Below are positions 32,777-42,073 of a stretch of DNA of 62,036 nucleotides, piece by piece. The DNA lies in the NCBI GenBank assembly GCA_019912425.1, contig JAIOIU010000136.1, positions 1-62,036 of the forward strand. Direction: 5' to 3'. How positions within the stretch are numbered: position 1 is the stretch's first letter; each line of letters opens with the position of its first letter. Below the pieces are notes generated by a model. The model worked only from the letters and a program-made list of their open reading frames with translations. It was not told the origin of the DNA and did no database searches. Source of the DNA: Candidatus Methylomirabilis tolerans (lineage in GTDB: Bacteria; Methylomirabilota; Methylomirabilia; Methylomirabilales; Methylomirabilaceae). The position numbers and the translations under genes are program-made.

Positions 32777-34270
32777 CTACAAATCGTCAACGCGCCCCGC
32801 TCCATTTTCCCGCACCGTTGCCACCCGCGACAGCGCATAGGCCGGTACTTCGCGGCCCGATTTCGTGATATAGGCGACTTGCAGTGCCCCGCCCATGACC
32901 GCCTCCACTCGCACTCGCTCAACTTCTTCACCCTGGGCAAAGACAGGGCCAACGCCGGGAAGAGCGGCCAGCGTGAACGTCGCCGAGGCGCTGATCACGC
33001 TCGATTGATTGGTAGGAATCGTGAGGGTCGCCGTTGCCATGGACGCCTCCAGCGTCCCGGTCAGGGGAGTGCTGGTCGTTGAGCTCGCGGCGCCATTCAT
33101 CGGTTTTTCCACTACTGTCACTGTCGTACCCAGCGGGATGTTGGACGCTGCCAAGGCGACCGTCATCGGATTCGTCGTGCCCAAAGGGATCGCGATATCC
33201 GGATTCGTAAACGAGCCGGTTGGCGAGGTTGGCGCCGTCACCCCTGCGACCGATGTAATCGTCAAGCTCGGCACATTGGGTAGCGCGAGCACCCCAGGCT
33301 GATCAATAGACGGTACCCCCACCAAGTTGATCGTCGCCGTGCTGGTGTACGACTCGATGCGAATGCGGCCCGCGCCACCACTCCCACCATTTCCTCCTGT
33401 ACCACCAGAGACGTTGATCGAGCCTTCATTCCCACCGATGCTCGTGGCAACTAAACGAATGGCCCCACCGCTTCCGCCTCCACCCGCATAGCCGGGGCCA
33501 GGGCCATTTCCTCCTCGAGCCAAGAGCGTACCCGTGAATGTAATCGTCCCTGATGATGCAATCAATAAGGCACCACCCCCTCCACCGCCACCGGCACCCG
33601 TCACCCCAAAGGACGCGCTCCCTCCACCACCTCCGGATCCGCCGATGAGGGGAACGAGAGAATTAGTCCCGTACGTGGGGCCGGAAGTCGCCGAGACGCA
33701 TCCGGCGGCGTAAGAGCCACCGCCACCAGCGCTGCCGAAGCTTCCGCCACCCGCGCTGAGATAATAAGGGCTGCATAACCTGCCACCTTCCCCACCACCG
33801 GGCCCCAGTCCTGTTCCGCCTGTGGTTGAGTTGATCCCATCCGCGCCATCACCGCCGTCGAAGCCGCCTGGCCCACTCAGCCCGCCATTAGGGGCAATGG
33901 TGGTCCCATTTCCCACACTCGCTCCAGCCCCACCACTCCCATCGATGGTTCCAGCGATCGTCACAGTGCCGCTGGCCAGCATCGTGACTGACGTATTGGT
34001 TGCGTTTCGGATGAACTTGACGGTGACGCCAGTCGGAATGTTGATCGTGGTAAAGTTAAAGGTCCCACTTAAGGGCAAGGGGACCATCACCGTGCACGGG
34101 GTGGGGGTACAAGTTGGGTTGAAGACCCCATCGGCGCCTGTGCTCCCGCTATCGAACGTCTGCGCGATCGCTGATGCACCCCAAAAGACAATCGCTGTCA
34201 CCACAGCACTGATCGCCAGCTTCGCCCCACAACGGCCTCGTATTCGATGGACTCCCATCAACTCAGTCAT
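32777..34270 (-). CDS. Secreted glycine-rich repeat protein
   Basis: A 497-residue protein with a signal peptide (AISAVVTAIVFWGASAIAQ, cleavage after AQ). Residues about 60-110 look like a beta-solenoid strand set (GTFNFTTINIPTGVTVKFI). Residues 110-310 are extremely Gly-rich (GGGSFGSAGGGGSYAAG, GGSGGGGGSASFG), as in adhesin-like low-complexity proteins. The C-terminal part has two Ser/Thr-rich stretches and ends VREVP-like SGREVPAYALSRVATVRENG. No enzyme motif is seen. AGAGGAGG lies eight bases before the ATG at 34270. It is the last gene of the leftward secreted block. Confidence 0.75.
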   Translation of the reverse strand: MTELMGVHRIRGRCGAKLAISAVVTAIVFWGASAIAQTFDSGSTGADGVFNPTCTPTPCTVMVPLPLSGTFNFTTINIPTGVTVKFIRNATNTSVTMLASGTVTIAGTIDGSGGAGASVGNGTTIAPNGGLSGPGGFDGGDGADGINSTTGGTGLGPGGGEGGRLCSPYYLSAGGGSFGSAGGGGSYAAGCVSATSGPTYGTNSLVPLIGGSGGGGGSASFGVTGAGGGGGGGALLIASSGTITFTGTLLARGGNGPGPGYAGGGGSGGAIRLVATSIGGNEGSINVSGGTGGNGGSGGAGRIRIESYTSTATINLVGVPSIDQPGVLALPNVPSLTITSVAGVTAPTSPTGSFTNPDIAIPLGTTNPMTVALAASNIPLGTTVTVVEKPMNGAASSTTSTPLTGTLEASMATATLTIPTNQSSVISASATFTLAALPGVGPVFAQGEEVERVRVEAVMGGALQVAYITKSGREVPAYALSRVATVRENGAGRVDDL

Positions 34271-34350: not shown

Positions 34351-35664
34351 TTACTCCACCGTAAACATATTCCAGCCCGTCCCCGTCGCCGTAGAGGTAT
34401 CAGTCGGCGTCGTAATGCGTACCGCTCTCGGCCCGGGTACAGCACCTGAGGTGATCGCGAGGGTAAACATCGCCTCAGTGCCATCGGGGCTCACGGCAAG
34501 GTTCGTCACTGACAGATTCGGGTCAGTCGCTCCATTCAACTCGAAGGTCACTCCGGTTGCACCCGAGAACCCAGCGCCACTAATCAGCACCGAGAGCCCG
34601 GCGACCCCACGTGCGCCGACGGATGGCAAGACCGCGGCGATGAACGGCTCAAGCGCGATCGCGACAAGTGACGACTGAACAAAGACTGTCTGCCCGATCA
34701 GCGGCGCGAAGCCGACACTGACGTTGGGTGCGGCAAGAGTACTCGGAGTGGAGAGGGGTGGTGTGACAAATCCTACGCTCACTGGTGGCGCAGTGAGTGT
34801 GTTGATCACACTTGACCCTTGAGCGATAAATCCCACGCTTACGGGCCGCGCCATCAGGTTGTTCACGATTGCGGACGTCAGGGCCGCAGGGGCAACACTC
34901 ACGGGTCTGGCAAAGATCTCTGGCGCCTGAACGATTACCACCGTGGCCGAATCGAAGAGGGACGGATCGTCGGTGCGCGTCGCCATGACCGTGATGGTGG
35001 CGGGCGACGGGGCCACCGCCGGTGCTGTATATAGCCCAGTCGGTGAGATCGTTCCGACAGTCATATTGCCGCTCACGACTCCATTCACGTTCCAGGTAAT
35101 AACGGCCGCAATCGTACCGCTCATCGTTGCCGTAAACTGCTGCGCCTGCTTCGTGAACAGCACGGCATTCGAAGGGCTGATCGTGATGGCGCTCAGCACC
35201 ATAAAAGGCTCCGGAGAAGTTGCAGTGCCGAGCGGTGTGGTTACCGTGATCGGCCCCGTGAGCGCCCCCAGCGGGACCGATGTGGCGATGCTGTTCGCCG
35301 TGGCCGCGCTGACGGTCGCGATGGCCCCACTGAAGAACACGGTATTTTGTGCGGAGTCCGGGCTAAAGCCTCCGCCGAAGATCGAGACCTCCGTCCCGAC
35401 TTTCCCCCTATCGGGACTCACCAGCGTGATAGCCACCGGTCCCGCGGTGTCAGCAACATTGTGGCGACTGATGGCGAGGATGTTGCCGACCCCATCGTAG
35501 GTATAGGTCGCCGCGTTCCCCCCCTGATCCACTACCCCCACCAGCCTCCCCAGGTCGTCATAGACGTAATGGACCGCGGACTCCTGCGCCCGCGCGCCGC
35601 CCGCCAGGCCCAGCATCAACTGGAGCGTCAAGAGAACTGCAAACGGTCTCAATCTTCGCTTCAT
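34351..35664 (-). CDS. Secreted protein with YD repeat, IPT/TIG domains and 20-residue repeats
   Basis: A 437-residue protein. Signal peptide residues 1-26 (LTLQLMLGLAGGARAQ). One RHS/YD-type pair, YVYDDLGRLVGVVDQGG and YTYDGVGNILAISR, occupies residues 30-68. An IPT/TIG domain follows (LVSPDRGKVGTEVSIFGGGF, 80-155), then a bacterial Ig-like stretch (ITISPSNAVLF) and four exact-length 20-residue repeats at 252-331. A second IPT/TIG domain (VLPSVGARGVAGLSVLISGA) ends the protein. It resembles a shortened RHS-related surface protein. The ATG at 35664 has AAGGA seven bases upstream. The RHS effector and its immunity candidate lie directly upstream. Confidence 0.8.
   Translation of the reverse strand: MKRRLRPFAVLLTLQLMLGLAGGARAQESAVHYVYDDLGRLVGVVDQGGNAATYTYDGVGNILAISRHNVADTAGPVAITLVSPDRGKVGTEVSIFGGGFSPDSAQNTVFFSGAIATVSAATANSIATSVPLGALTGPITVTTPLGTATSPEPFMVLSAITISPSNAVLFTKQAQQFTATMSGTIAAVITWNVNGVVSGNMTVGTISPTGLYTAPAVAPSPATITVMATRTDDPSLFDSATVVIVQAPEIFARPVSVAPAALTSAIVNNLMARPVSVGFIAQGSSVINTLTAPPVSVGFVTPPLSTPSTLAAPNVSVGFAPLIGQTVFVQSSLVAIALEPFIAAVLPSVGARGVAGLSVLISGAGFSGATGVTFELNGATDPNLSVTNLAVSPDGTEAMFTLAITSGAVPGPRAVRITTPTDTSTATGTGWNMFTVE
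34672..34911 (-). repeat. Four 60-base in-frame repeats (VSVGF module)
   Basis: The protein segment consists of four back-to-back 20-residue units beginning ARPVSVAP, ARPVSVGF, APPVSVGF and APNVSVGF. The unit length is identical each time while the second half diverges, which suggests old tandem duplication with selection on the VSV core. Confidence 0.75.
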
Positions 35665-35687: not shown

Positions 35688-35975
35688 CTATTTGAATAGC
35701 CGACCGAGCAGTCGCCAGAGCAACCACAACACACCGCCAACCGTCGAGTACAGAACCACATTACTCCCAACAGAGATCGCAACGACCACAATCGGCTCCC
35801 ACCATCGTTGGTGAATCGTCTCAAGCGCCATCAACATAATAGAACTTGGCCAGAGAACAACCCCAAGGTACGGCCAGTCAAAAATGTCCCACAAATACCG
35901 AGCGATGATGAATATAACCACAGGAATAAGTAGGCCCGCCAAGGTCCAATACATCACAAATCGAGTCATCTTCAT
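35688..35975 (-). CDS. Small membrane protein, candidate immunity protein of the RHS effector
   Basis: A 95-residue protein of three to four hydrophobic helices (WTLAGLLIPVVIFIIARYL, VVLWPSSIMLMAL, PIVVVAISVGSNVVLY, GGVLWLLWRLLG). Its ATG overlaps the stop codon of the RHS gene as ATGA, so it is translated together with it. Its GC is about 49 percent, below the roughly 63 percent of the RHS core. Position, coupling and composition are those of an immunity gene in polymorphic toxin loci. No known immunity family is recognised, and membrane localisation would suit an effector acting at the envelope. Confidence 0.7.
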   Translation of the reverse strand: MKMTRFVMYWTLAGLLIPVVIFIIARYLWDIFDWPYLGVVLWPSSIMLMALETIHQRWWEPIVVVAISVGSNVVLYSTVGGVLWLLWRLLGRLFK

Positions 35976-38900
35976 GGCCTGGGCTCACCATAGGTTTCTC
36001 TGAGCTGACGGAACAGTTGCTTCGGAAGTATCGTGTTAGGTACTTGCAATCCCCCCGCCCGCAAGACCTCCTCTACGAAGATCGCGCAATTTCGGGAGAA
36101 CAAATTATAGGGACGGGGCTGGCCGAGTGCGTTGCTAAGAATCTGCTGCATTATGGCGTCCTGAGATGGGCTTGTCGGAATCATAATCGTCTGGATCGCC
36201 TGTCGCGGATCAAGACGAACGGTACCAAGTACATCCTGTCCCGCCAACACCGCTATAGAACGTTCTAAGGGATAGTGACCCACTGTCTGCGGCGTATTGA
36301 TGCCCACCCCGATGTGGCCGAATCCTCTTCTGCCGAGGGCGTCAGGAACTCCAGGGTATAAGGCAACTATTGCATCTAGTCCTAAGGGGTCGGTAAATGA
36401 GATTGGGTTGTTCAGAACATACCGATAAAGGTTTATGCCCCCGAAGAGCCCGACTGGATCCTCACCGAGGAAGCGATGAAGCAGTGGTAAGTAGTAGCGT
36501 GCCCGGTACGAATAGAGGCCGACCACGCTATCATTTTCTCGGCTCGTGTATTGGAATGGGTTTGGGAAGGTTGGATTTGTAGAAGACGTAGCGCCAAAAG
36601 GGTCGTAGGAATACCGGACTATGGGCGACGCGGTAGAATCTGTAACCGCTAAGGTACTCCCCAATGGGTCGTAAATGGAGAAGTAGGTGCCGTCCCGATT
36701 GGTGAAGCTGAAAGCCTCGTCGATCGCGAGCGACCGAAAGTAGTTCGTTGTGCCGCTTGGGTCTAGTTGCTGGATGATATCGAGGCCGTCGTAGAGGTAT
36801 TGGGTGGGCTGGCCATTGATCTGTTTGGTCGCCCGACGACCGAAGGCATCGTACCCAAAGTCGGCGCTCGTGGTAGGACCGCTGAGGGCCACCAGCCGAT
36901 TCCGCGCATCCCACGTGAAGGTCGTCACGCCGGCAGCATCGGTGACGCTCGTGAGATTCCCATTCGCGTCGTAGGTCATGGACTTGTCGCTGAAGGTCTG
37001 CTGGCGATTGGCGGCATCATAGGCAGCGCTCGGCACCGGATCAGGCAACAGCGTCCGTGCGAAGGAGCCGCCTACGCCGGTGCGGTTGCCGGCGCGGTCG
37101 TAAGTGTAAGTGAGATCGCCAAGCACACCTGTCGCGTTCTGGTAGATCAGGGCGGTAAACCGAGAGGCCGCATCGTACTGGTAGTCGGTGGAGACGCCGT
37201 TGGGCAGCGCGAGCTTCGTTCGCCGACCGACAGCATCGTAGTCAATCGCCACCGGGTTCAGGGGCGCCTGGGTGATGCTGCGCAGCCGAGACGCGGCGTC
37301 GTAAGTGTAGGTGACTGGGTTGAGATCATTGACCTGCATCTCGGTCCGGCGGCCCAGGGGATCGTAGTCGTAGGCCAGCGTGCCGAGGCCGGTGGTCTCC
37401 GACACGAGCCGATCCAGCGGGTCGTAGGCGAGCGTGATCGGCCGGTGCGGATCGGCGCTGTCGTCGGCCTGCACCAAGCGACCGACCGTATCGTAGACGA
37501 AGCCGGTTGTGGTGCCATCGGCGAAGGCGGATGTCGTGCGCCGGTTCAGCGCGTCATAGCTGAAGGTCGCGGTGTGCCCCGTGCGATCGGTGGTCCTCAC
37601 CAGGTTGCCATTACCGTCATAGGTGAAGGTCTCGACAGCGCCCATGGGATCGGTCCGGGAGGCCAGGTGGTCCATGCTGTCGTAGGTGTGGGTGATTGTG
37701 TGGTTCAGCGCGTCCGTCACGGTGAGGAGGTTTCCGTTGCCGTCGTAGGTGAAGCGGGTTACGCCGCCCCGGGGATCGGCAAGGCTGCTAAGCCGGTTCA
37801 GGGGATCGTAGGTGAAGGTCGTGGCCTTCCCACGTGGGTCAGTCTGGGTCAGGAGGCGCGAGACGGCATCGTACGTCCGGGTCGAGACGTTGCCGAGCGG
37901 GTCAGTGATCGTGCTCAGGTTCCCGCTCGCATCGTACTCGAAGCGGGTCGTGTGGCCGAGGGCATCGGTCGTCGCAGTCGGCTGACCGAAGGCATTAGAG
38001 GTCATCGTGGTCGTCTGCCCGAGGGGGTCCGCGAGACTCGTGAGGTTCCCCGTGGCGTTGTAGGCGAAGGTCGTGACGTTGCCCATCGGATCGGTCAGGC
38101 GCGTGAGCCGGTTGAAGGTCGGCTCATAGGTGAAAGTGCGGACGTGGCCCTGCGGGTCGGTAATGGAGGTGACGTTGCCCGCATCGTAGGTGAATCGGGT
38201 GACGCGCCCCAGCGGATCGGTGGTGGCGGTCAGGAGATTGGACAAGGGCTCGTACTCGAACAGGGTCGTCTGGCCGAGGGCGTCGCTGATGGCGGTGCGG
38301 AGACCGGCGCCGTTGAACCGGTGCGTGGTGGGATGGCCGCGGGGATCGACCAGGACGGTGGCGACGACTTGGCTGCTCGAGGGGGTGGCGCTGCAGGGTG
38401 CCTGAGTGATCGGGCCGCCGGCCGCTGCCTCAGTCAAGAGCTGCTGCGCAGGTGCGGTCGTCGCCAGGTCGGCCGTGACGTAGTAGATCGTGAAGAGGCC
38501 ACCATCGGCCAGTTGCTGGCGGCAGACGCGGCCGTTCGCATCGTAGGTGTTGCGGAGGAAGGTGATGCCGCGTGGGTCGGTGATGGAGGTCATGCGGCTG
38601 CTCGCGTCGTAGGTGTAGGTGGTGCGCCCGCCCGCCGGATCGGTGATGGCTGTGAGACGGTTCGAGCCGTCATACTCGTACCGGACCGTGCGCCCGAGAG
38701 GATCCGTGGCGGCGTTGACGCGGTCGCGAGCCAGTATCACCCAACTGATCGAGATGGCACGTCCTCCGGGATCGCGGATGGCGGTCGGGTTGTACTCGAC
38801 TTGGCGCTCGATAGAGACCGCGTTGCCGCTGCGGTCTCTGACCTCAATCAGCAGGCCGAAGCTGTCGAAGCGGAGGGTTTGACCGTCCCGATAGCGCAGT

Positions 38901-41900
38901 GATCTGCTGCCGTCCGGGTTGGTCGTGATGCGGGCCCCACGAAAGGCGGGGATCGTGGTATTGATGTAGCTGCCGTCGGGCTGTTTGAAGAACTGGGTCC
39001 GAGCGTTCCCCTCATAGGCGTAGGTCAACACCGTCGAGGCCGTCTGGAGAAGGACGTCGTCGAACGTCAGGGTGGTACCGATACCGAAGGACCCAGGGGC
39101 CGTGTCGCCCGAGCGATAGGTTCGGGTCAGGCTGACGGGAATCCGACCAGGGAGCACCAGGTCGGTCTGGGTGAGGATGAAGATGCCGGTGGAGAGGTCC
39201 ACGGGGTCGGCGCCAGGGGTACCGAGGCCTTTCTGAGGGGTGGGGCCGCCTTGGGGGTCACCGACGCGCGAGGAACTCCAGACCGCCGCACCGCAGCAGA
39301 ACTTGGGGATGCCGACGCCGGGGTCCGTGGCGATACTCGTCCCGTTCTCGCTCACCGTCCCGGTCCCGGCCAGGCGCCACGCGTTCGGCGCCTCGCCCAG
39401 GTTCGACGACTCGTCGAAGTACCACAGTTCGGCCTTCTCGCCCGGTGCGAGCCCCAGGTCATTGGGGGCCTCGAACGGAATGGGTTGGGTGGGGGTGCCC
39501 CCACCCTGCTTGCCGAAGTAGAACATGTAGACGGTTCGCGCGTTCACCTCTGGCGGAAGGGGCGGCACCGGCAACCGATCGATCGGGACGGTACGGATCG
39601 AGACCTGCTCGTTGGGCTGTCCGTCCCAGCCGACGATCCGAGTTCCGGCAGGGATGCGGAGCCTGACGCCTGGCAGGTCCGGGTCGGTAGCGACCGTCTC
39701 CCGTGTCGGATCGATCAGCGTGAAGTTGGAGTTTTTCTGGGCGTGCAGGTGGGGGAGATACGGGAGGTGATTGAGCTGCCAGGCCGCGATGGTCAGGGAG
39801 ACGGTGATGGTTGGATAATGCTGGGTCGGGGTGCTGGCCGGCCCGCCGTCGATCAGGACCACCTGGTCACCGGCAGGCGGGTCGAGGAGCAGGAAGTTAC
39901 CGTTAGCGTCGGTGGAGGCCGTCGTGCCGCCGACGGCGATCGTGACGCCCTGAAGCGGGCGTTCGTCGGTATCCACGACGCGGCCGCTGAGCGCCGTGCG
40001 GCCAGCGGCGAGGACCTGTACCATCAGCGTGGCTGAACGGCTCCGCATGACACCGTCAATCATGGCGGTCCCGGTGACGGTCAGGGTGAAGGTACCGGCA
40101 GGGACGGAGCCGGCCGCGGCGACGGTGAGGGTGGCGACTCCTCCCGGCGCGATCTGCGGCGGGCTGAGTATCGTGGTTACGCCTACCGGTGCCCCGCTCA
40201 GCGCGAGGGCGATGGAGCCGATAAAGCCCTCTGACACTGCGGCCGTGATCCGGTAGCTCACCTGGTCGCCCGCCAGGACCGCCCCGGTTGTGGGCGCGAT
40301 GGTCAGGGTGAAGTCCGGGCCGCCGACGACGGTAAAGGTGGCAGTTGCGCTGCTCATGTTGCTGGCCTGGTCGGCAATGCTCGCCTGCAGGGTGTGGGGA
40401 CCATTCGCGAGGGGCGTCGCCAGCGTGGCGGTACCGCCGGTAGGTGAGAGCGCGAATGCCGCTGAAATGTCGCTCCCATCGAGCGTAACGCGGAAGGTGC
40501 CTAATGCAACCCCCGAGGCAGCGTCGCTGTAGGCAAGCGTGATGGTGAGCGTCGGCGTGGAGACGCTGCTACCATTGGCTGGGGCGGTGATGGCAAGGAC
40601 AGGCGGGGTGTTGTCGGTCGTGATGGGGATCATAGCACTCACCTCACTGCCTGCTTTGTCGCGCGCAAACGCCGAAAGGGTGTGTGCGCCGTTGGCAAGA
40701 AGCGTCGTGTCGAGTGGGGTGGTGAAGGGTGGCGTATTGGTGGCCGCGAGGGTCAGGTCGTCGGCTTTTAACGTCACGAGGCCGATGCCGTTGCTGTCAC
40801 TCGCCGTGGCCGTGAAGGGAATGGTTCCGCTCAGCTTGGCAGACGCGGCCGGATTGGTGATCGAGACAGCAGGCGGCAGATCGTCGTGGACAACGGTGAT
40901 GCTAGTCGGCGCAGAGGTAAGCCCATTGCCTGCCGCCACTGTAGCAAAGGTCTGGAGGGAGTTGCTTGTGTTTTTGGCGAGGAGGACACTGATAGCGAAG
41001 GCGCCGGCCGCATCGGCAAAGCCGGCGACGGGCGCTGAGCCTCCGTGAACGGTTACGAGGGCGCCTGGCTCCGTAGTCCCATGGAGCAGGAGGGTGGGCT
41101 GGTTCGTAAAAGCGGGTGCGGCGGGGTCGAGCGTCGGCGCCGCGGGGGCGAGGAATTTGAGGACCCGCTTCTGCCCGGCCTCGACGACGTAGAGATTTCC
41201 CTGACTGTCGAGGGCGAGGCCACGGGGCTTGCGAAGCCCTTGTGCAAAGGTTACTACCTGACCATCCGGCCGGCGTGTCAGGATGACGCCGTATTCAGGT
41301 CCTGGCTCTTTGGTCAGGGTTCCCGTGAGGAAGAGTCCCTCGACACGATCGCGGACGACGCCGAAGGGGTCTTTGAGGGGCTGGGTAATCACCGCGGTGA
41401 CCTGCCCGTCGGCATCGACATGGAAGAGGCTGCCCTTGATGGCGGCGTTGCCCCGCTCGAAGCGCTCGGCCGCGACAAGGAGACTGCCGTCGGGTACGGT
41501 GAGGACCCCCTGCGGGTCCTTGAATTCGTCGATCAACGGCGCGACGACGCCGCTCGTATCGATCGAGTAGAGCGCCCCTTTTTCATCGCGCTCACCCCTT
41601 CGCCCTTGTGCGGAGACGACGAGATCGCCGGTAAGCCCGAGGGCGAGCCCTTTCGGATGCTTGAACCCGTCGATCACTACGGTGAGGGTCTGGGTCGTGG
41701 GGTCGCGGCGGAGAATCACCCCCTTCTGCTCTTTTCCAGCTATTCCCCGCTGGTGCTTGGCAGCAAGGAATAGTACGCCGTCCTCATCGAGGGTGATCCC
41801 CTCGGGTTTCTCCAGGTTATCAATCACGACGGTGACCGTACGGTCGGGGGCGATCTGCAGGATCCAGCCGGGCTCGGCCTCGGAGAGCAGAAGCTGATCT

Positions 41901-42073
41901 TGAGGGTCGAGCGTAAGGTACTGCGGGGACTTCAGGTCATTGATGACGATCTCAAACGGGGCAAGTGCTTGCAAGGACGGGTTGGGATCGAGGGCGGAGG
42001 CCTGACCGGCCAGGGCGAGGAGGCCAACTAGACCAAGTAAAACGAGAGTACAGTTGCTACTGGAACGTAGCAT
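35972..42073 (-). CDS. Giant secreted RHS repeat protein with C-terminal NlpC/P60-LRAT-like tip
   Basis: A 2033-residue protein with a signal peptide (LVLLGLVGLLALAGQASA). Residues about 35-310 form an NHL/SMP-30-like propeller (KGLALGLTGDLVVSAQG). Residues 315-590 are Ig-like repeats, and about 690-745 a carboxypeptidase-regulatory-like domain (SGRVVDTDERPLQGV). About 970 to 1050 is the DUF6531-type entry (DPVDLSTGIFILTQTDLVL). RHS/YD repeats follow to about 1760. The RHS-associated core ends NPISFTDPLGL near 1899. The last 134 residues are a distinct tip with GHIGVGI, a GHYP histidine and NCAIFVEEVLRAGG. That His-then-Cys order is typical of permuted papain-like (LRAT/NlpC-P60) hydrolases. 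GC falls from about 63 percent in the core to about 53 percent in the tip. Confidence 0.85.
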   Translation of the reverse strand: MLRSSSNCTLVLLGLVGLLALAGQASALDPNPSLQALAPFEIVINDLKSPQYLTLDPQDQLLLSEAEPGWILQIAPDRTVTVVIDNLEKPEGITLDEDGVLFLAAKHQRGIAGKEQKGVILRRDPTTQTLTVVIDGFKHPKGLALGLTGDLVVSAQGRRGERDEKGALYSIDTSGVVAPLIDEFKDPQGVLTVPDGSLLVAAERFERGNAAIKGSLFHVDADGQVTAVITQPLKDPFGVVRDRVEGLFLTGTLTKEPGPEYGVILTRRPDGQVVTFAQGLRKPRGLALDSQGNLYVVEAGQKRVLKFLAPAAPTLDPAAPAFTNQPTLLLHGTTEPGALVTVHGGSAPVAGFADAAGAFAISVLLAKNTSNSLQTFATVAAGNGLTSAPTSITVVHDDLPPAVSITNPAASAKLSGTIPFTATASDSNGIGLVTLKADDLTLAATNTPPFTTPLDTTLLANGAHTLSAFARDKAGSEVSAMIPITTDNTPPVLAITAPANGSSVSTPTLTITLAYSDAASGVALGTFRVTLDGSDISAAFALSPTGGTATLATPLANGPHTLQASIADQASNMSSATATFTVVGGPDFTLTIAPTTGAVLAGDQVSYRITAAVSEGFIGSIALALSGAPVGVTTILSPPQIAPGGVATLTVAAAGSVPAGTFTLTVTGTAMIDGVMRSRSATLMVQVLAAGRTALSGRVVDTDERPLQGVTIAVGGTTASTDANGNFLLLDPPAGDQVVLIDGGPASTPTQHYPTITVSLTIAAWQLNHLPYLPHLHAQKNSNFTLIDPTRETVATDPDLPGVRLRIPAGTRIVGWDGQPNEQVSIRTVPIDRLPVPPLPPEVNARTVYMFYFGKQGGGTPTQPIPFEAPNDLGLAPGEKAELWYFDESSNLGEAPNAWRLAGTGTVSENGTSIATDPGVGIPKFCCGAAVWSSSRVGDPQGGPTPQKGLGTPGADPVDLSTGIFILTQTDLVLPGRIPVSLTRTYRSGDTAPGSFGIGTTLTFDDVLLQTASTVLTYAYEGNARTQFFKQPDGSYINTTIPAFRGARITTNPDGSRSLRYRDGQTLRFDSFGLLIEVRDRSGNAVSIERQVEYNPTAIRDPGGRAISISWVILARDRVNAATDPLGRTVRYEYDGSNRLTAITDPAGGRTTYTYDASSRMTSITDPRGITFLRNTYDANGRVCRQQLADGGLFTIYYVTADLATTAPAQQLLTEAAAGGPITQAPCSATPSSSQVVATVLVDPRGHPTTHRFNGAGLRTAISDALGQTTLFEYEPLSNLLTATTDPLGRVTRFTYDAGNVTSITDPQGHVRTFTYEPTFNRLTRLTDPMGNVTTFAYNATGNLTSLADPLGQTTTMTSNAFGQPTATTDALGHTTRFEYDASGNLSTITDPLGNVSTRTYDAVSRLLTQTDPRGKATTFTYDPLNRLSSLADPRGGVTRFTYDGNGNLLTVTDALNHTITHTYDSMDHLASRTDPMGAVETFTYDGNGNLVRTTDRTGHTATFSYDALNRRTTSAFADGTTTGFVYDTVGRLVQADDSADPHRPITLAYDPLDRLVSETTGLGTLAYDYDPLGRRTEMQVNDLNPVTYTYDAASRLRSITQAPLNPVAIDYDAVGRRTKLALPNGVSTDYQYDAASRFTALIYQNATGVLGDLTYTYDRAGNRTGVGGSFARTLLPDPVPSAAYDAANRQQTFSDKSMTYDANGNLTSVTDAAGVTTFTWDARNRLVALSGPTTSADFGYDAFGRRATKQINGQPTQYLYDGLDIIQQLDPSGTTNYFRSLAIDEAFSFTNRDGTYFSIYDPLGSTLAVTDSTASPIVRYSYDPFGATSSTNPTFPNPFQYTSRENDSVVGLYSYRARYYLPLLHRFLGEDPVGLFGGINLYRYVLNNPISFTDPLGLDAIVALYPGVPDALGRRGFGHIGVGINTPQTVGHYPLERSIAVLAGQDVLGTVRLDPRQAIQTIMIPTSPSQDAIMQQILSNALGQPRPYNLFSRNCAIFVEEVLRAGGLQVPNTILPKQLFRQLRETYGEPRP

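What the first reader, a model, noticed from the sequence alone, without database searches (positions are those of the whole stretch)
35688..36376. RHS effector tip with permuted papain-like (LRAT/NlpC-P60) signature and overlapping membrane-protein immunity candidate
Seen: after the RHS core ending in DPLGL, the last 134 residues carry GHIGVGI and NCAIFVEEVLRAGG, a His-then-Cys order typical of circularly permuted NlpC/P60-LRAT hydrolases. GC steps from about 63 percent (core) to about 53 percent (tip) to about 49 percent (next gene). The 95-residue multi-helix protein starts within the RHS stop as ATGA. Known: polymorphic toxins use this layout with a cognate immunity gene next. Inference: the tip is a cell-wall or lipid-acting enzyme and the small protein protects the producer. 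No matching effector-immunity pair is familiar to me.
Basis: partly seen in the sequence, partly recalled or inferred. Interest (0 to 1): 0.72.

Follow-up and report, generated by a model that had tools for sequence, protein, structure and literature searches.

The report
RHS toxin tip with immunity gene
A giant secreted protein of a Methylomirabilis bacterium ends in a swappable enzyme that looks like a lipid-cutting toxin, and the small membrane protein encoded right behind it is swapped along with it, as expected of an antidote; this is a new example of a known kind of bacterial weapon.

Summary
On the minus strand, a 2,033-residue Sec-exported RHS protein (42073-35972) ends in a 134-residue tip (36376-35975), followed by a 95-residue membrane protein (35975-35688) with an ATGA overlap. 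One detail needs correcting: G+C falls about 80 codons before the tip, inside the RHS core end, so the foreign-looking unit is core end + tip + small gene.

The tip folds confidently (pLDDT 86.8). Its nearest solved fold is H-REV107, and the only PDB chains its NC motif finds are PLAAT phospholipases/acyltransferases and DeSI-1, with Cys97 on their NC cysteine. His21 and Cys97 are invariant in six homologues. It is a permuted, LRAT-like papain fold, not a canonical NlpC/P60.

In 34 RHS tips, every pair of similar downstream partners (7/7) also has similar tips (0 of 10,000 shuffles). A sister species with a 56-82% identical core carries an alpha/beta-hydrolase tip with a lipoprotein partner. 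One homologous tip (G035) has a lipoprotein partner instead.

Best reading: a polymorphic toxin with a phospholipase/acyltransferase-type tip acting on the target membrane from the periplasm, and a cognate membrane immunity protein. It resembles Tox-Act1/Imm-Act1 but has a different carrier and no T6SS. Activity and immunity are untested.

The parts
35972..42073 (-). RHS polymorphic-toxin gene, 2,033 aa: Sec-type signal, NHL/ScyD-like propeller, Ig-like domains, DUF6531, 16 RHS repeats, Rhs_assc_core, toxin tip
   Evidence: ORF and translation; Pfam and NCBIfam domains
41993..42073 (-). Sec-type signal peptide, residues 1-27 (MLRSSSNCTLVLLGLVGLLALAGQASA)
   Evidence: hydrophobic segment 10-28 by hydropathy; cleavage site read by eye, not predicted by a program
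41144..41911 (-). NHL / SMP-30 / ScyD-like beta-propeller region, about residues 55-310
   Evidence: PF01436, PF08450, NF033206 matches
36377..36607 (-). Rhs_assc_core, residues 1823-1899: end of the RHS cage, with two Asp motifs DPVGL (D1872) and DPLGL (D1895) of the RHS/TcC aspartyl autoprotease
   Evidence: TIGR03696 E 9.2e-23; motif positions; catalytic role from PMC8636562
35975..36376 (-). Toxin tip, residues 1900-2033: permuted papain (LRAT-like) domain
   Evidence: AF2 pLDDT 86.8, pTM 0.85; Foldseek H-REV107 and picornavirus-polyprotein matches; NC-motif match to PLAAT/DeSI
36314..36316 (-). Predicted catalytic His (residue 1920, tip H21), start of strand 21-26
   Evidence: invariant in all six tip homologues; secondary structure
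36086..36088 (-). Predicted catalytic Cys (residue 1996, tip C97) at the N-terminus of helix 97-107, in an [NH]-C-x2-F motif
   Evidence: invariant; aligned with the NC cysteine of PLAAT4, HRASLS2 and DeSI-1
35972..35975 (-). ATGA overlap of the RHS stop codon and the start codon of the small gene
   Evidence: sequence
35688..35975 (-). Candidate immunity gene, 95 aa, three hydrophobic segments; family signature: invariant G14, P18, W42-P43, N72
   Evidence: translation; homologues behind three other tips; held-out HMM; hydropathy
35688..36616 (-). Low-G+C cassette: core end + tip + small gene (49-55% G+C against 65% upstream and 62% downstream), the probable exchanged unit
   Evidence: composition; core-end-only fragments in other genomes
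34351..35664 (-). Next gene: signal peptide + one YD repeat + TIG domain; residues 15-67 are 60% identical to the gene in the corresponding place of sister species G008
   Evidence: translation; Pfam; BLASTP

Best explanation
The locus is an RHS polymorphic toxin with its cognate immunity gene. The giant RHS protein is exported through Sec and forms a YD-repeat cage. Its C-terminal aspartyl-autoprotease motif (D1872/D1895) is expected to cut after Leu1899 and free the 134-residue tip. The tip is a circularly permuted NlpC/P60-LRAT-type thiol hydrolase (His1920, Cys1996) and most likely attacks acyl esters of membrane phospholipids (phospholipase A / acyltransferase chemistry) of a neighbouring cell from the periplasmic side. 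The 95-residue integral membrane protein, translationally coupled by ATGA, most likely protects the producer at the inner membrane by binding the tip or shielding its target. Shown here: the gene anatomy, the predicted fold, the invariant His/Cys, and the co-exchange of tip and partner. Inferred: toxicity, lipid as substrate, autocleavage, and immunity by the small protein.
For: Anatomy and domains. AF2 model of the tip, pLDDT 86.8 and pTM 0.85, with His at the start of a strand and Cys at the N-terminus of a later helix, the permuted order. Foldseek best PDB match is the H-REV107 N-terminal domain (prob 0.77, E 0.072); best viral matches include kobuvirus, parechovirus and fipivirus polyproteins (prob up to 1.0), some of whose 2A proteins are, from general knowledge, H-box/NC LRAT relatives. 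The only four PDB sequences found with the C-terminal half of the tip are PLAAT4 (two constructs), HRASLS2 and DeSI-1, each with its NC cysteine on Cys97 (E 0.7-1.4 each). His21 and Cys97 are invariant in six homologues. Homologous small membrane proteins follow the homologous tips of G092, G085 and G080 (held-out profile E 3.4e-6 for G085). Across 95 genomes the strong tip and strong small-gene matches coincide (Fisher p 1.6e-6 with the window's species counted once). Across 34 RHS tips, 7 of 7 similar partner pairs have similar tips, 0 of 10,000 shuffles. Sister species G008 has a 56-82% identical core over residues 1151-1900, then an unrelated alpha/beta-hydrolase tip and a lipoprotein beta-propeller partner, then a gene that begins like the window's downstream YD/TIG gene. 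Precedent: Tox-Act1 is a permuted NlpC/P60 phospholipase toxic only in the periplasm and neutralised by a two-TM immunity protein (PMC12994826).
Against: No Pfam family reaches its cut-off for the tip (best C97 E 0.0076, LRAT 0.05), and no PDB or viral Foldseek hit reaches E 0.001. Homologous tip G035 has a lipoprotein partner and no P0002 homologue. P0002 homologues occur without RHS or tip neighbours in three genomes of one genus. Substrate and toxicity are untested. How a Sec-exported RHS protein reaches the surface or a target cell in an organism without a detectable T6SS sheath gene is unknown.
Confidence: 0.72

Rival explanations
1. The tip is a cell-wall hydrolase (NlpC/P60-type peptidoglycan endopeptidase or amidase); the small membrane protein or, in G035, a lipoprotein protects the periplasm.
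For: The superfamily includes peptidoglycan peptidases; the G035 partner is a predicted lipoprotein, a common immunity form for periplasmic wall hydrolases.
Against: The His-before-Cys order and the Foldseek/NC-motif neighbours are permuted lipid or deubiquitinase-type enzymes, whereas canonical NlpC/P60 has Cys first. PMC12994826 argues that permuted members, TseH included, act on acyl groups. No NLPC_P60, CHAP or DUF6695 hit in Pfam.
Confidence: 0.1
2. The tip is a protein-cleaving or protein-modifying cysteine hydrolase (PPPDE/DeSI-like) that acts on a target-cell protein.
For: The best Pfam lead is Peptidase_C97 (E 0.0076), and DeSI-1 is among the four PDB NC-motif matches.
Against: Foldseek prefers H-REV107. 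Partners are membrane proteins or lipoproteins, which suggests a periplasmic or membrane site of action.
Confidence: 0.08
3. No toxin-immunity pair: the tip is a surface acyltransferase or lipid-handling enzyme used by the cell itself, and P0002 is its membrane partner or anchor.
For: P0002 homologues exist alone as ordinary small membrane proteins. The carrier is Sec-exported and no T6SS sheath gene is found.
Against: Tips and partners are exchanged together on related RHS cores. Tandem and orphan or decayed tip cassettes occur (G035, G084, G067), typical of polymorphic toxins. Presence is sporadic: only the window's species in its genus.
Confidence: 0.06
4. The tip is a toxin, but P0002 is not its immunity protein (for example it helps the tip to insert or to be exported).
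For: One tip-family member lacks a P0002 homologue (G035), and stand-alone homologues exist.
Against: Conserved position directly behind the tip in four genera; in G035 a different gene fills the same place, as expected when immunity families are replaced.
Confidence: 0.04

Closest known systems
Tox-Act1 / Imm-Act1 (Salmonella T6SS effector pair; PMC12994826)
   Same: Permuted NlpC/P60 core with His then Cys; an immunity gene for a membrane protein directly downstream; sister families act on lipids.
   Different: Tox-Act1 is a T6SS effector that was shown to be a phospholipase. Here the domain is an RHS tip on a Sec-exported NHL/Ig carrier in a genome with no T6SS sheath gene found. The small protein has three hydrophobic segments rather than two TM helices. 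Sequence homology of the two pairs was not tested.
LRAT / PLAAT (HRASLS, H-REV107) family, PF04970
   Same: Best structural match; His-then-NC order; the Y-x-[LI]-x-S-x-NC-x2-FV stretch aligns.
   Different: Below Pfam's cut-off (14.3 against 24.3 bits); eukaryotic members are membrane-anchored cell enzymes (general knowledge), this one is carried by an RHS protein.
RHS polymorphic toxins (Rhs1/Tre23, TseI, TcC; PMC8636562)
   Same: YD-repeat core, two DPxGL motifs before the variable tip, downstream immunity gene, tip swapping and orphan cassettes.
   Different: No PAAR or other T6SS adaptor domain in the family scan; Sec signal with propeller and Ig domains; spacing between the DPxGL motifs is 18 residues here against 17 in Rhs1.
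Bacterial teneurin-like proteins (PMC13018210)
   Same: Often Sec-exported, beta-propeller plus YD shell, variable toxic C-terminus with a downstream immunity gene.
   Different: The propeller here is N-terminal to Ig-like domains; teneurin shell score 34.7 bits against a cut-off of 50.
Tox-NLPC/P60 of Zhang et al. 2012 (PMC3482391)
   Same: Papain-like toxin tips, also on RHS carriers.
   Different: Catalogued there with order C, H, D (canonical); no LRAT-like class is named in the held text of that survey.

Membership tests
RHS polymorphic toxin with cognate immunity gene | RHS/YD core with Rhs_assc_core before a variable C-terminal tip | tested here: met
   PF05593 E 3.7e-108; TIGR03696 E 9.2e-23 ending at residue 1899
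RHS polymorphic toxin with cognate immunity gene | Related cores carry unrelated tips | tested here: met
   G008 core 56-82% identical over residues 1151-1900, unrelated tip; many tip types on related cores
RHS polymorphic toxin with cognate immunity gene | Downstream gene changes with the tip | tested here: met
   7/7 similar partner pairs have similar tips, 0 of 10,000 shuffles; exception in the other direction: G035
RHS polymorphic toxin with cognate immunity gene | Tip is toxic and the downstream protein neutralises it | not testable with these tools
   needs expression experiments
RHS polymorphic toxin with cognate immunity gene | Autoproteolytic release of the tip | not testable with these tools
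   motif present (D1872, D1895), cleavage not tested
Permuted NlpC/P60 (LRAT/YaeF/PPPDE) fold | Strand-borne His before a helix-borne Cys in sequence | tested here: met
   AF2 secondary structure, H21 at strand 21-26, C97 at helix 97-107; both invariant
Permuted NlpC/P60 (LRAT/YaeF/PPPDE) fold | Structural similarity to solved members | tested here: inconclusive
   best PDB match is 2kyt H-REV107, prob 0.77, TM 0.41-0.43, E 0.072: top-ranked and concordant, but below strict significance
Permuted NlpC/P60 (LRAT/YaeF/PPPDE) fold | Cys-His contact distance | not testable with these tools
   model coordinates are not exposed
Pfam LRAT (PF04970) as curated | Score above the curated cut-off | tested here: not met
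   14.3 bits against 24.3; hence 'LRAT-like', not a member of the Pfam family
Pfam Peptidase_C97 (PF05903) as curated | Score above the curated cut-off | tested here: not met
   16.5 bits against 29.2
Tox-Act1 clade | Phylogenetic placement in the Tox-Act1 clade | not tested
   Tox-Act1 sequences were not fetched; comparison rests on fold, residue order and gene layout described in PMC12994826
T6SS RHS effector | T6SS present / PAAR-type adaptor | tested here: not met
   no VipB/TssC sheath gene in the own genome while the E. coli control rings; no PAAR domain in the scan
Canonical NlpC/P60 peptidoglycan hydrolase | Cys before His, NLPC_P60/CHAP profile match | tested here: not met
   order reversed; no such profile match

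The most novel reading that the evidence does not exclude
A T6SS-independent, Sec-exported RHS toxin of NC10 bacteria whose tip is a membrane-phospholipid acyl hydrolase or transferase, with a new family of three-helix membrane immunity proteins. The inherited unit is core end + tip + immunity gene, and the same tip family can switch between membrane-protein and lipoprotein immunity.
Probability: 0.4. Interest if true: 0.55.

Novelty: new member of a known kind. Interest (0 to 1): 0.42.

Why it matters
[quoted passage not shown] This locus offers an independent, RHS-borne family that no Pfam or NCBIfam model reaches at its cut-off, with a defined candidate immunity family, in uncultured NC10 methane oxidisers and their Rokubacteria relatives, for which two literature searches found no paper on RHS or polymorphic toxins. 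It makes two questions testable: how Sec-exported RHS toxins act without a T6SS, and how one toxin family comes to use unrelated immunity proteins.

Tried and rejected
Plasmid tblastn with two tips: no match. Viral contigs: no relative. GTDB contigs with the tip profile: only the five Methylomirabilota loci. About 290 genomes from outside the class: only a truncated RHS tip in G277 and a doubtful match in G362. The phylum of G277 holds only two genomes. PDB by sequence with the whole tip or the tip profile: nothing relevant; only the NC-half fragment of the window's own tip was informative, and the same fragment of the G092 tip found nothing. The weak class hits L006-L009 (E 0.005-0.008) were set aside: the plus-strand ORFs read there do not resemble the tip, and the tip profile did not find them again. 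The P0002 model (pLDDT 74) was judged too weak for a fold search. The G+C step as evidence for a breakpoint exactly at the tip was rejected: the step lies upstream of the tip.

Full report
WHAT IS THERE. The finding lies on the minus strand. A 6.1-kb gene (42073-35972) encodes a 2,033-residue protein. It has a Sec-type N-terminus, an NHL/ScyD-like propeller region, bacterial Ig domains, DUF6531, sixteen RHS repeats and a complete Rhs_assc_core ending at residue 1899. The remaining 134 residues (window 36376-35975) are the tip. The next gene (35975-35688, 95 aa) starts in the ATGA overlap. The genome is a Candidatus Methylomirabilis: a near-identical locus is in a record titled so, and one other genome of the same species carries the pair.

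COMPOSITION. It actually begins about 80 codons earlier: GC3 is about 0.72 up to residue 1819 and 0.55 from residue 1820. The conserved core end (1823-1899) has 50.6% G+C, the tip 54.5%, the small gene 49.3%, and the following gene 61.6%. The foreign-looking unit is therefore core end + tip + small gene. This agrees with core-end-only fragments elsewhere in the class, for example in G083, G038 and G055.

THE TIP. No curated family accepts it; the leads are Peptidase_C97 (E 0.0076), LRAT (0.05) and Lnb_N (0.29), all papain-type families. Homologues were found as RHS tips in G092 (53% identity over the matched part), G080 (39%), G085 (31%) and G035 (32%), and a truncated one in another phylum (G277). 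His21 and Cys97 are invariant in all six. AlphaFold2 with the five-sequence alignment gives pLDDT 86.8 and pTM 0.85: a strand-rich first half, with His21 at the start of a strand, and a helical second half with Cys97 at the N-terminus of a helix. Foldseek's best solved structure is the H-REV107 domain (prob 0.77, E 0.072). Its best viral models are picornaviral polyproteins, including kobuvirus and parechovirus, whose 2A proteins are known LRAT relatives (general knowledge). A phmmer search of the PDB with residues 67-110 of the tip returns only four sequences out of 177,635, all permuted papain folds: PLAAT4 (two constructs), HRASLS2 and DeSI-1, each with its NC cysteine on Cys97. None is significant alone (E 0.7-1.4), but the agreement is specific.

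THE SMALL PROTEIN. P0002 has three hydrophobic segments. Homologues follow the tips of G092, G080 and G085. A profile from three of them, built without G085, still finds the G085 partner among 2,660 ORFs (E 3.4e-6). Over 95 genomes of the class, strong tip and strong small-gene matches coincide in four species and disagree in one (Fisher p 1.6e-6). The exception, G035, has a predicted lipoprotein in the same place, and a second, decayed copy of tip and lipoprotein further down. Stand-alone homologues of P0002 exist in three genomes of one genus, away from RHS genes, so the family is wider than immunity.

TIP SWAPPING. RHS core ends were found in 30 of 95 class genomes. In all, 34 tips could be read with their downstream region (33 from the class plus G277). 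They include alpha/beta-hydrolases, a deaminase-like tip (by motif), an M15-like tip (weak Pfam match, E 0.048), glycine-rich tips, and others. All seven pairs of loci with similar partners have similar tips; none of 10,000 shuffles reached seven. The clearest case is sister species G008: the core is 56-82% identical from residue 1151 to 1900, identity then drops to background, the tip is an alpha/beta-hydrolase, and the partner is a lipoprotein beta-propeller. The gene after that begins with the same YD-repeat region as the window's downstream gene (60% over 53 residues).

DELIVERY. The two DPxGL motifs associated with tip release in RHS proteins are present (DPVGL at 1872, DPLGL at 1895; PMC8636562); cleavage is inferred. 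No T6SS sheath gene is found in the genome, so delivery is probably not by T6SS. Sec export plus a propeller resembles surface-exposed RHS and teneurin-like toxins (PMC13018210), but the outer-membrane step is unknown.

MECHANISM. By analogy with LRAT/PLAAT enzymes, with the hydrophobic pocket of permuted NlpC/P60 proteins (PMC3142127), and with Tox-Act1, which cleaves PG and PE and is neutralised by a membrane-spanning immunity protein (PMC12994826), the tip most likely attacks membrane phospholipids and P0002 guards the producer's inner membrane. This is inference; peptidoglycan or protein substrates are less likely but not excluded.

VERDICT. The observation and its interpretation hold, with the G+C boundary corrected and the substrate narrowed towards lipid. 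It is a new toxin/immunity family pair of a known kind.

Noticed in passing
window 32777-34270 (-): 497-aa secreted protein, very glycine-rich, two genes downstream of the small gene on the same strand, with no Pfam match.
   Followed up: no
window 34351-35664 (-): Short secreted protein with one YD repeat and TIG domain directly after the small gene; its N-terminus is conserved in the corresponding place of G008, so it may be a fixed part of the locus.
   Followed up: partly
L039, L040, L041 (G069, G064, G050): Stand-alone P0002-like membrane proteins of about 100 aa directly after a conserved gene of about 420 aa, with no RHS nearby: the small-protein family has another role or these are orphan immunity genes.
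   Followed up: partly
L033 / L087 (G067), around L033 1411-1862: An isolated NCASFVEDVVRAGG fragment with no intact RHS gene upstream, followed through an ATGA overlap by a 70-aa membrane protein of different sequence: an orphan or decayed relative of the pair.
   Followed up: partly
L083-L086 (G055, G072, G083, G038): Rokubacteria RHS loci, several with more than one core-end fragment, carrying diverse tips and partner genes; the fragments look like orphan cassettes.
   Followed up: partly
L011 and L013, upstream of the RHS gene: The G092 and G080 RHS genes follow a gene with several CxxCH motifs (multihaem cytochrome-like) on the same strand.
   Followed up: no
L076, L077 (G053, G060): Closely similar tips of about 290 aa with similar Sel1-repeat-like lipoprotein partners (by eye), another consistent tip/partner family.
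   Followed up: no
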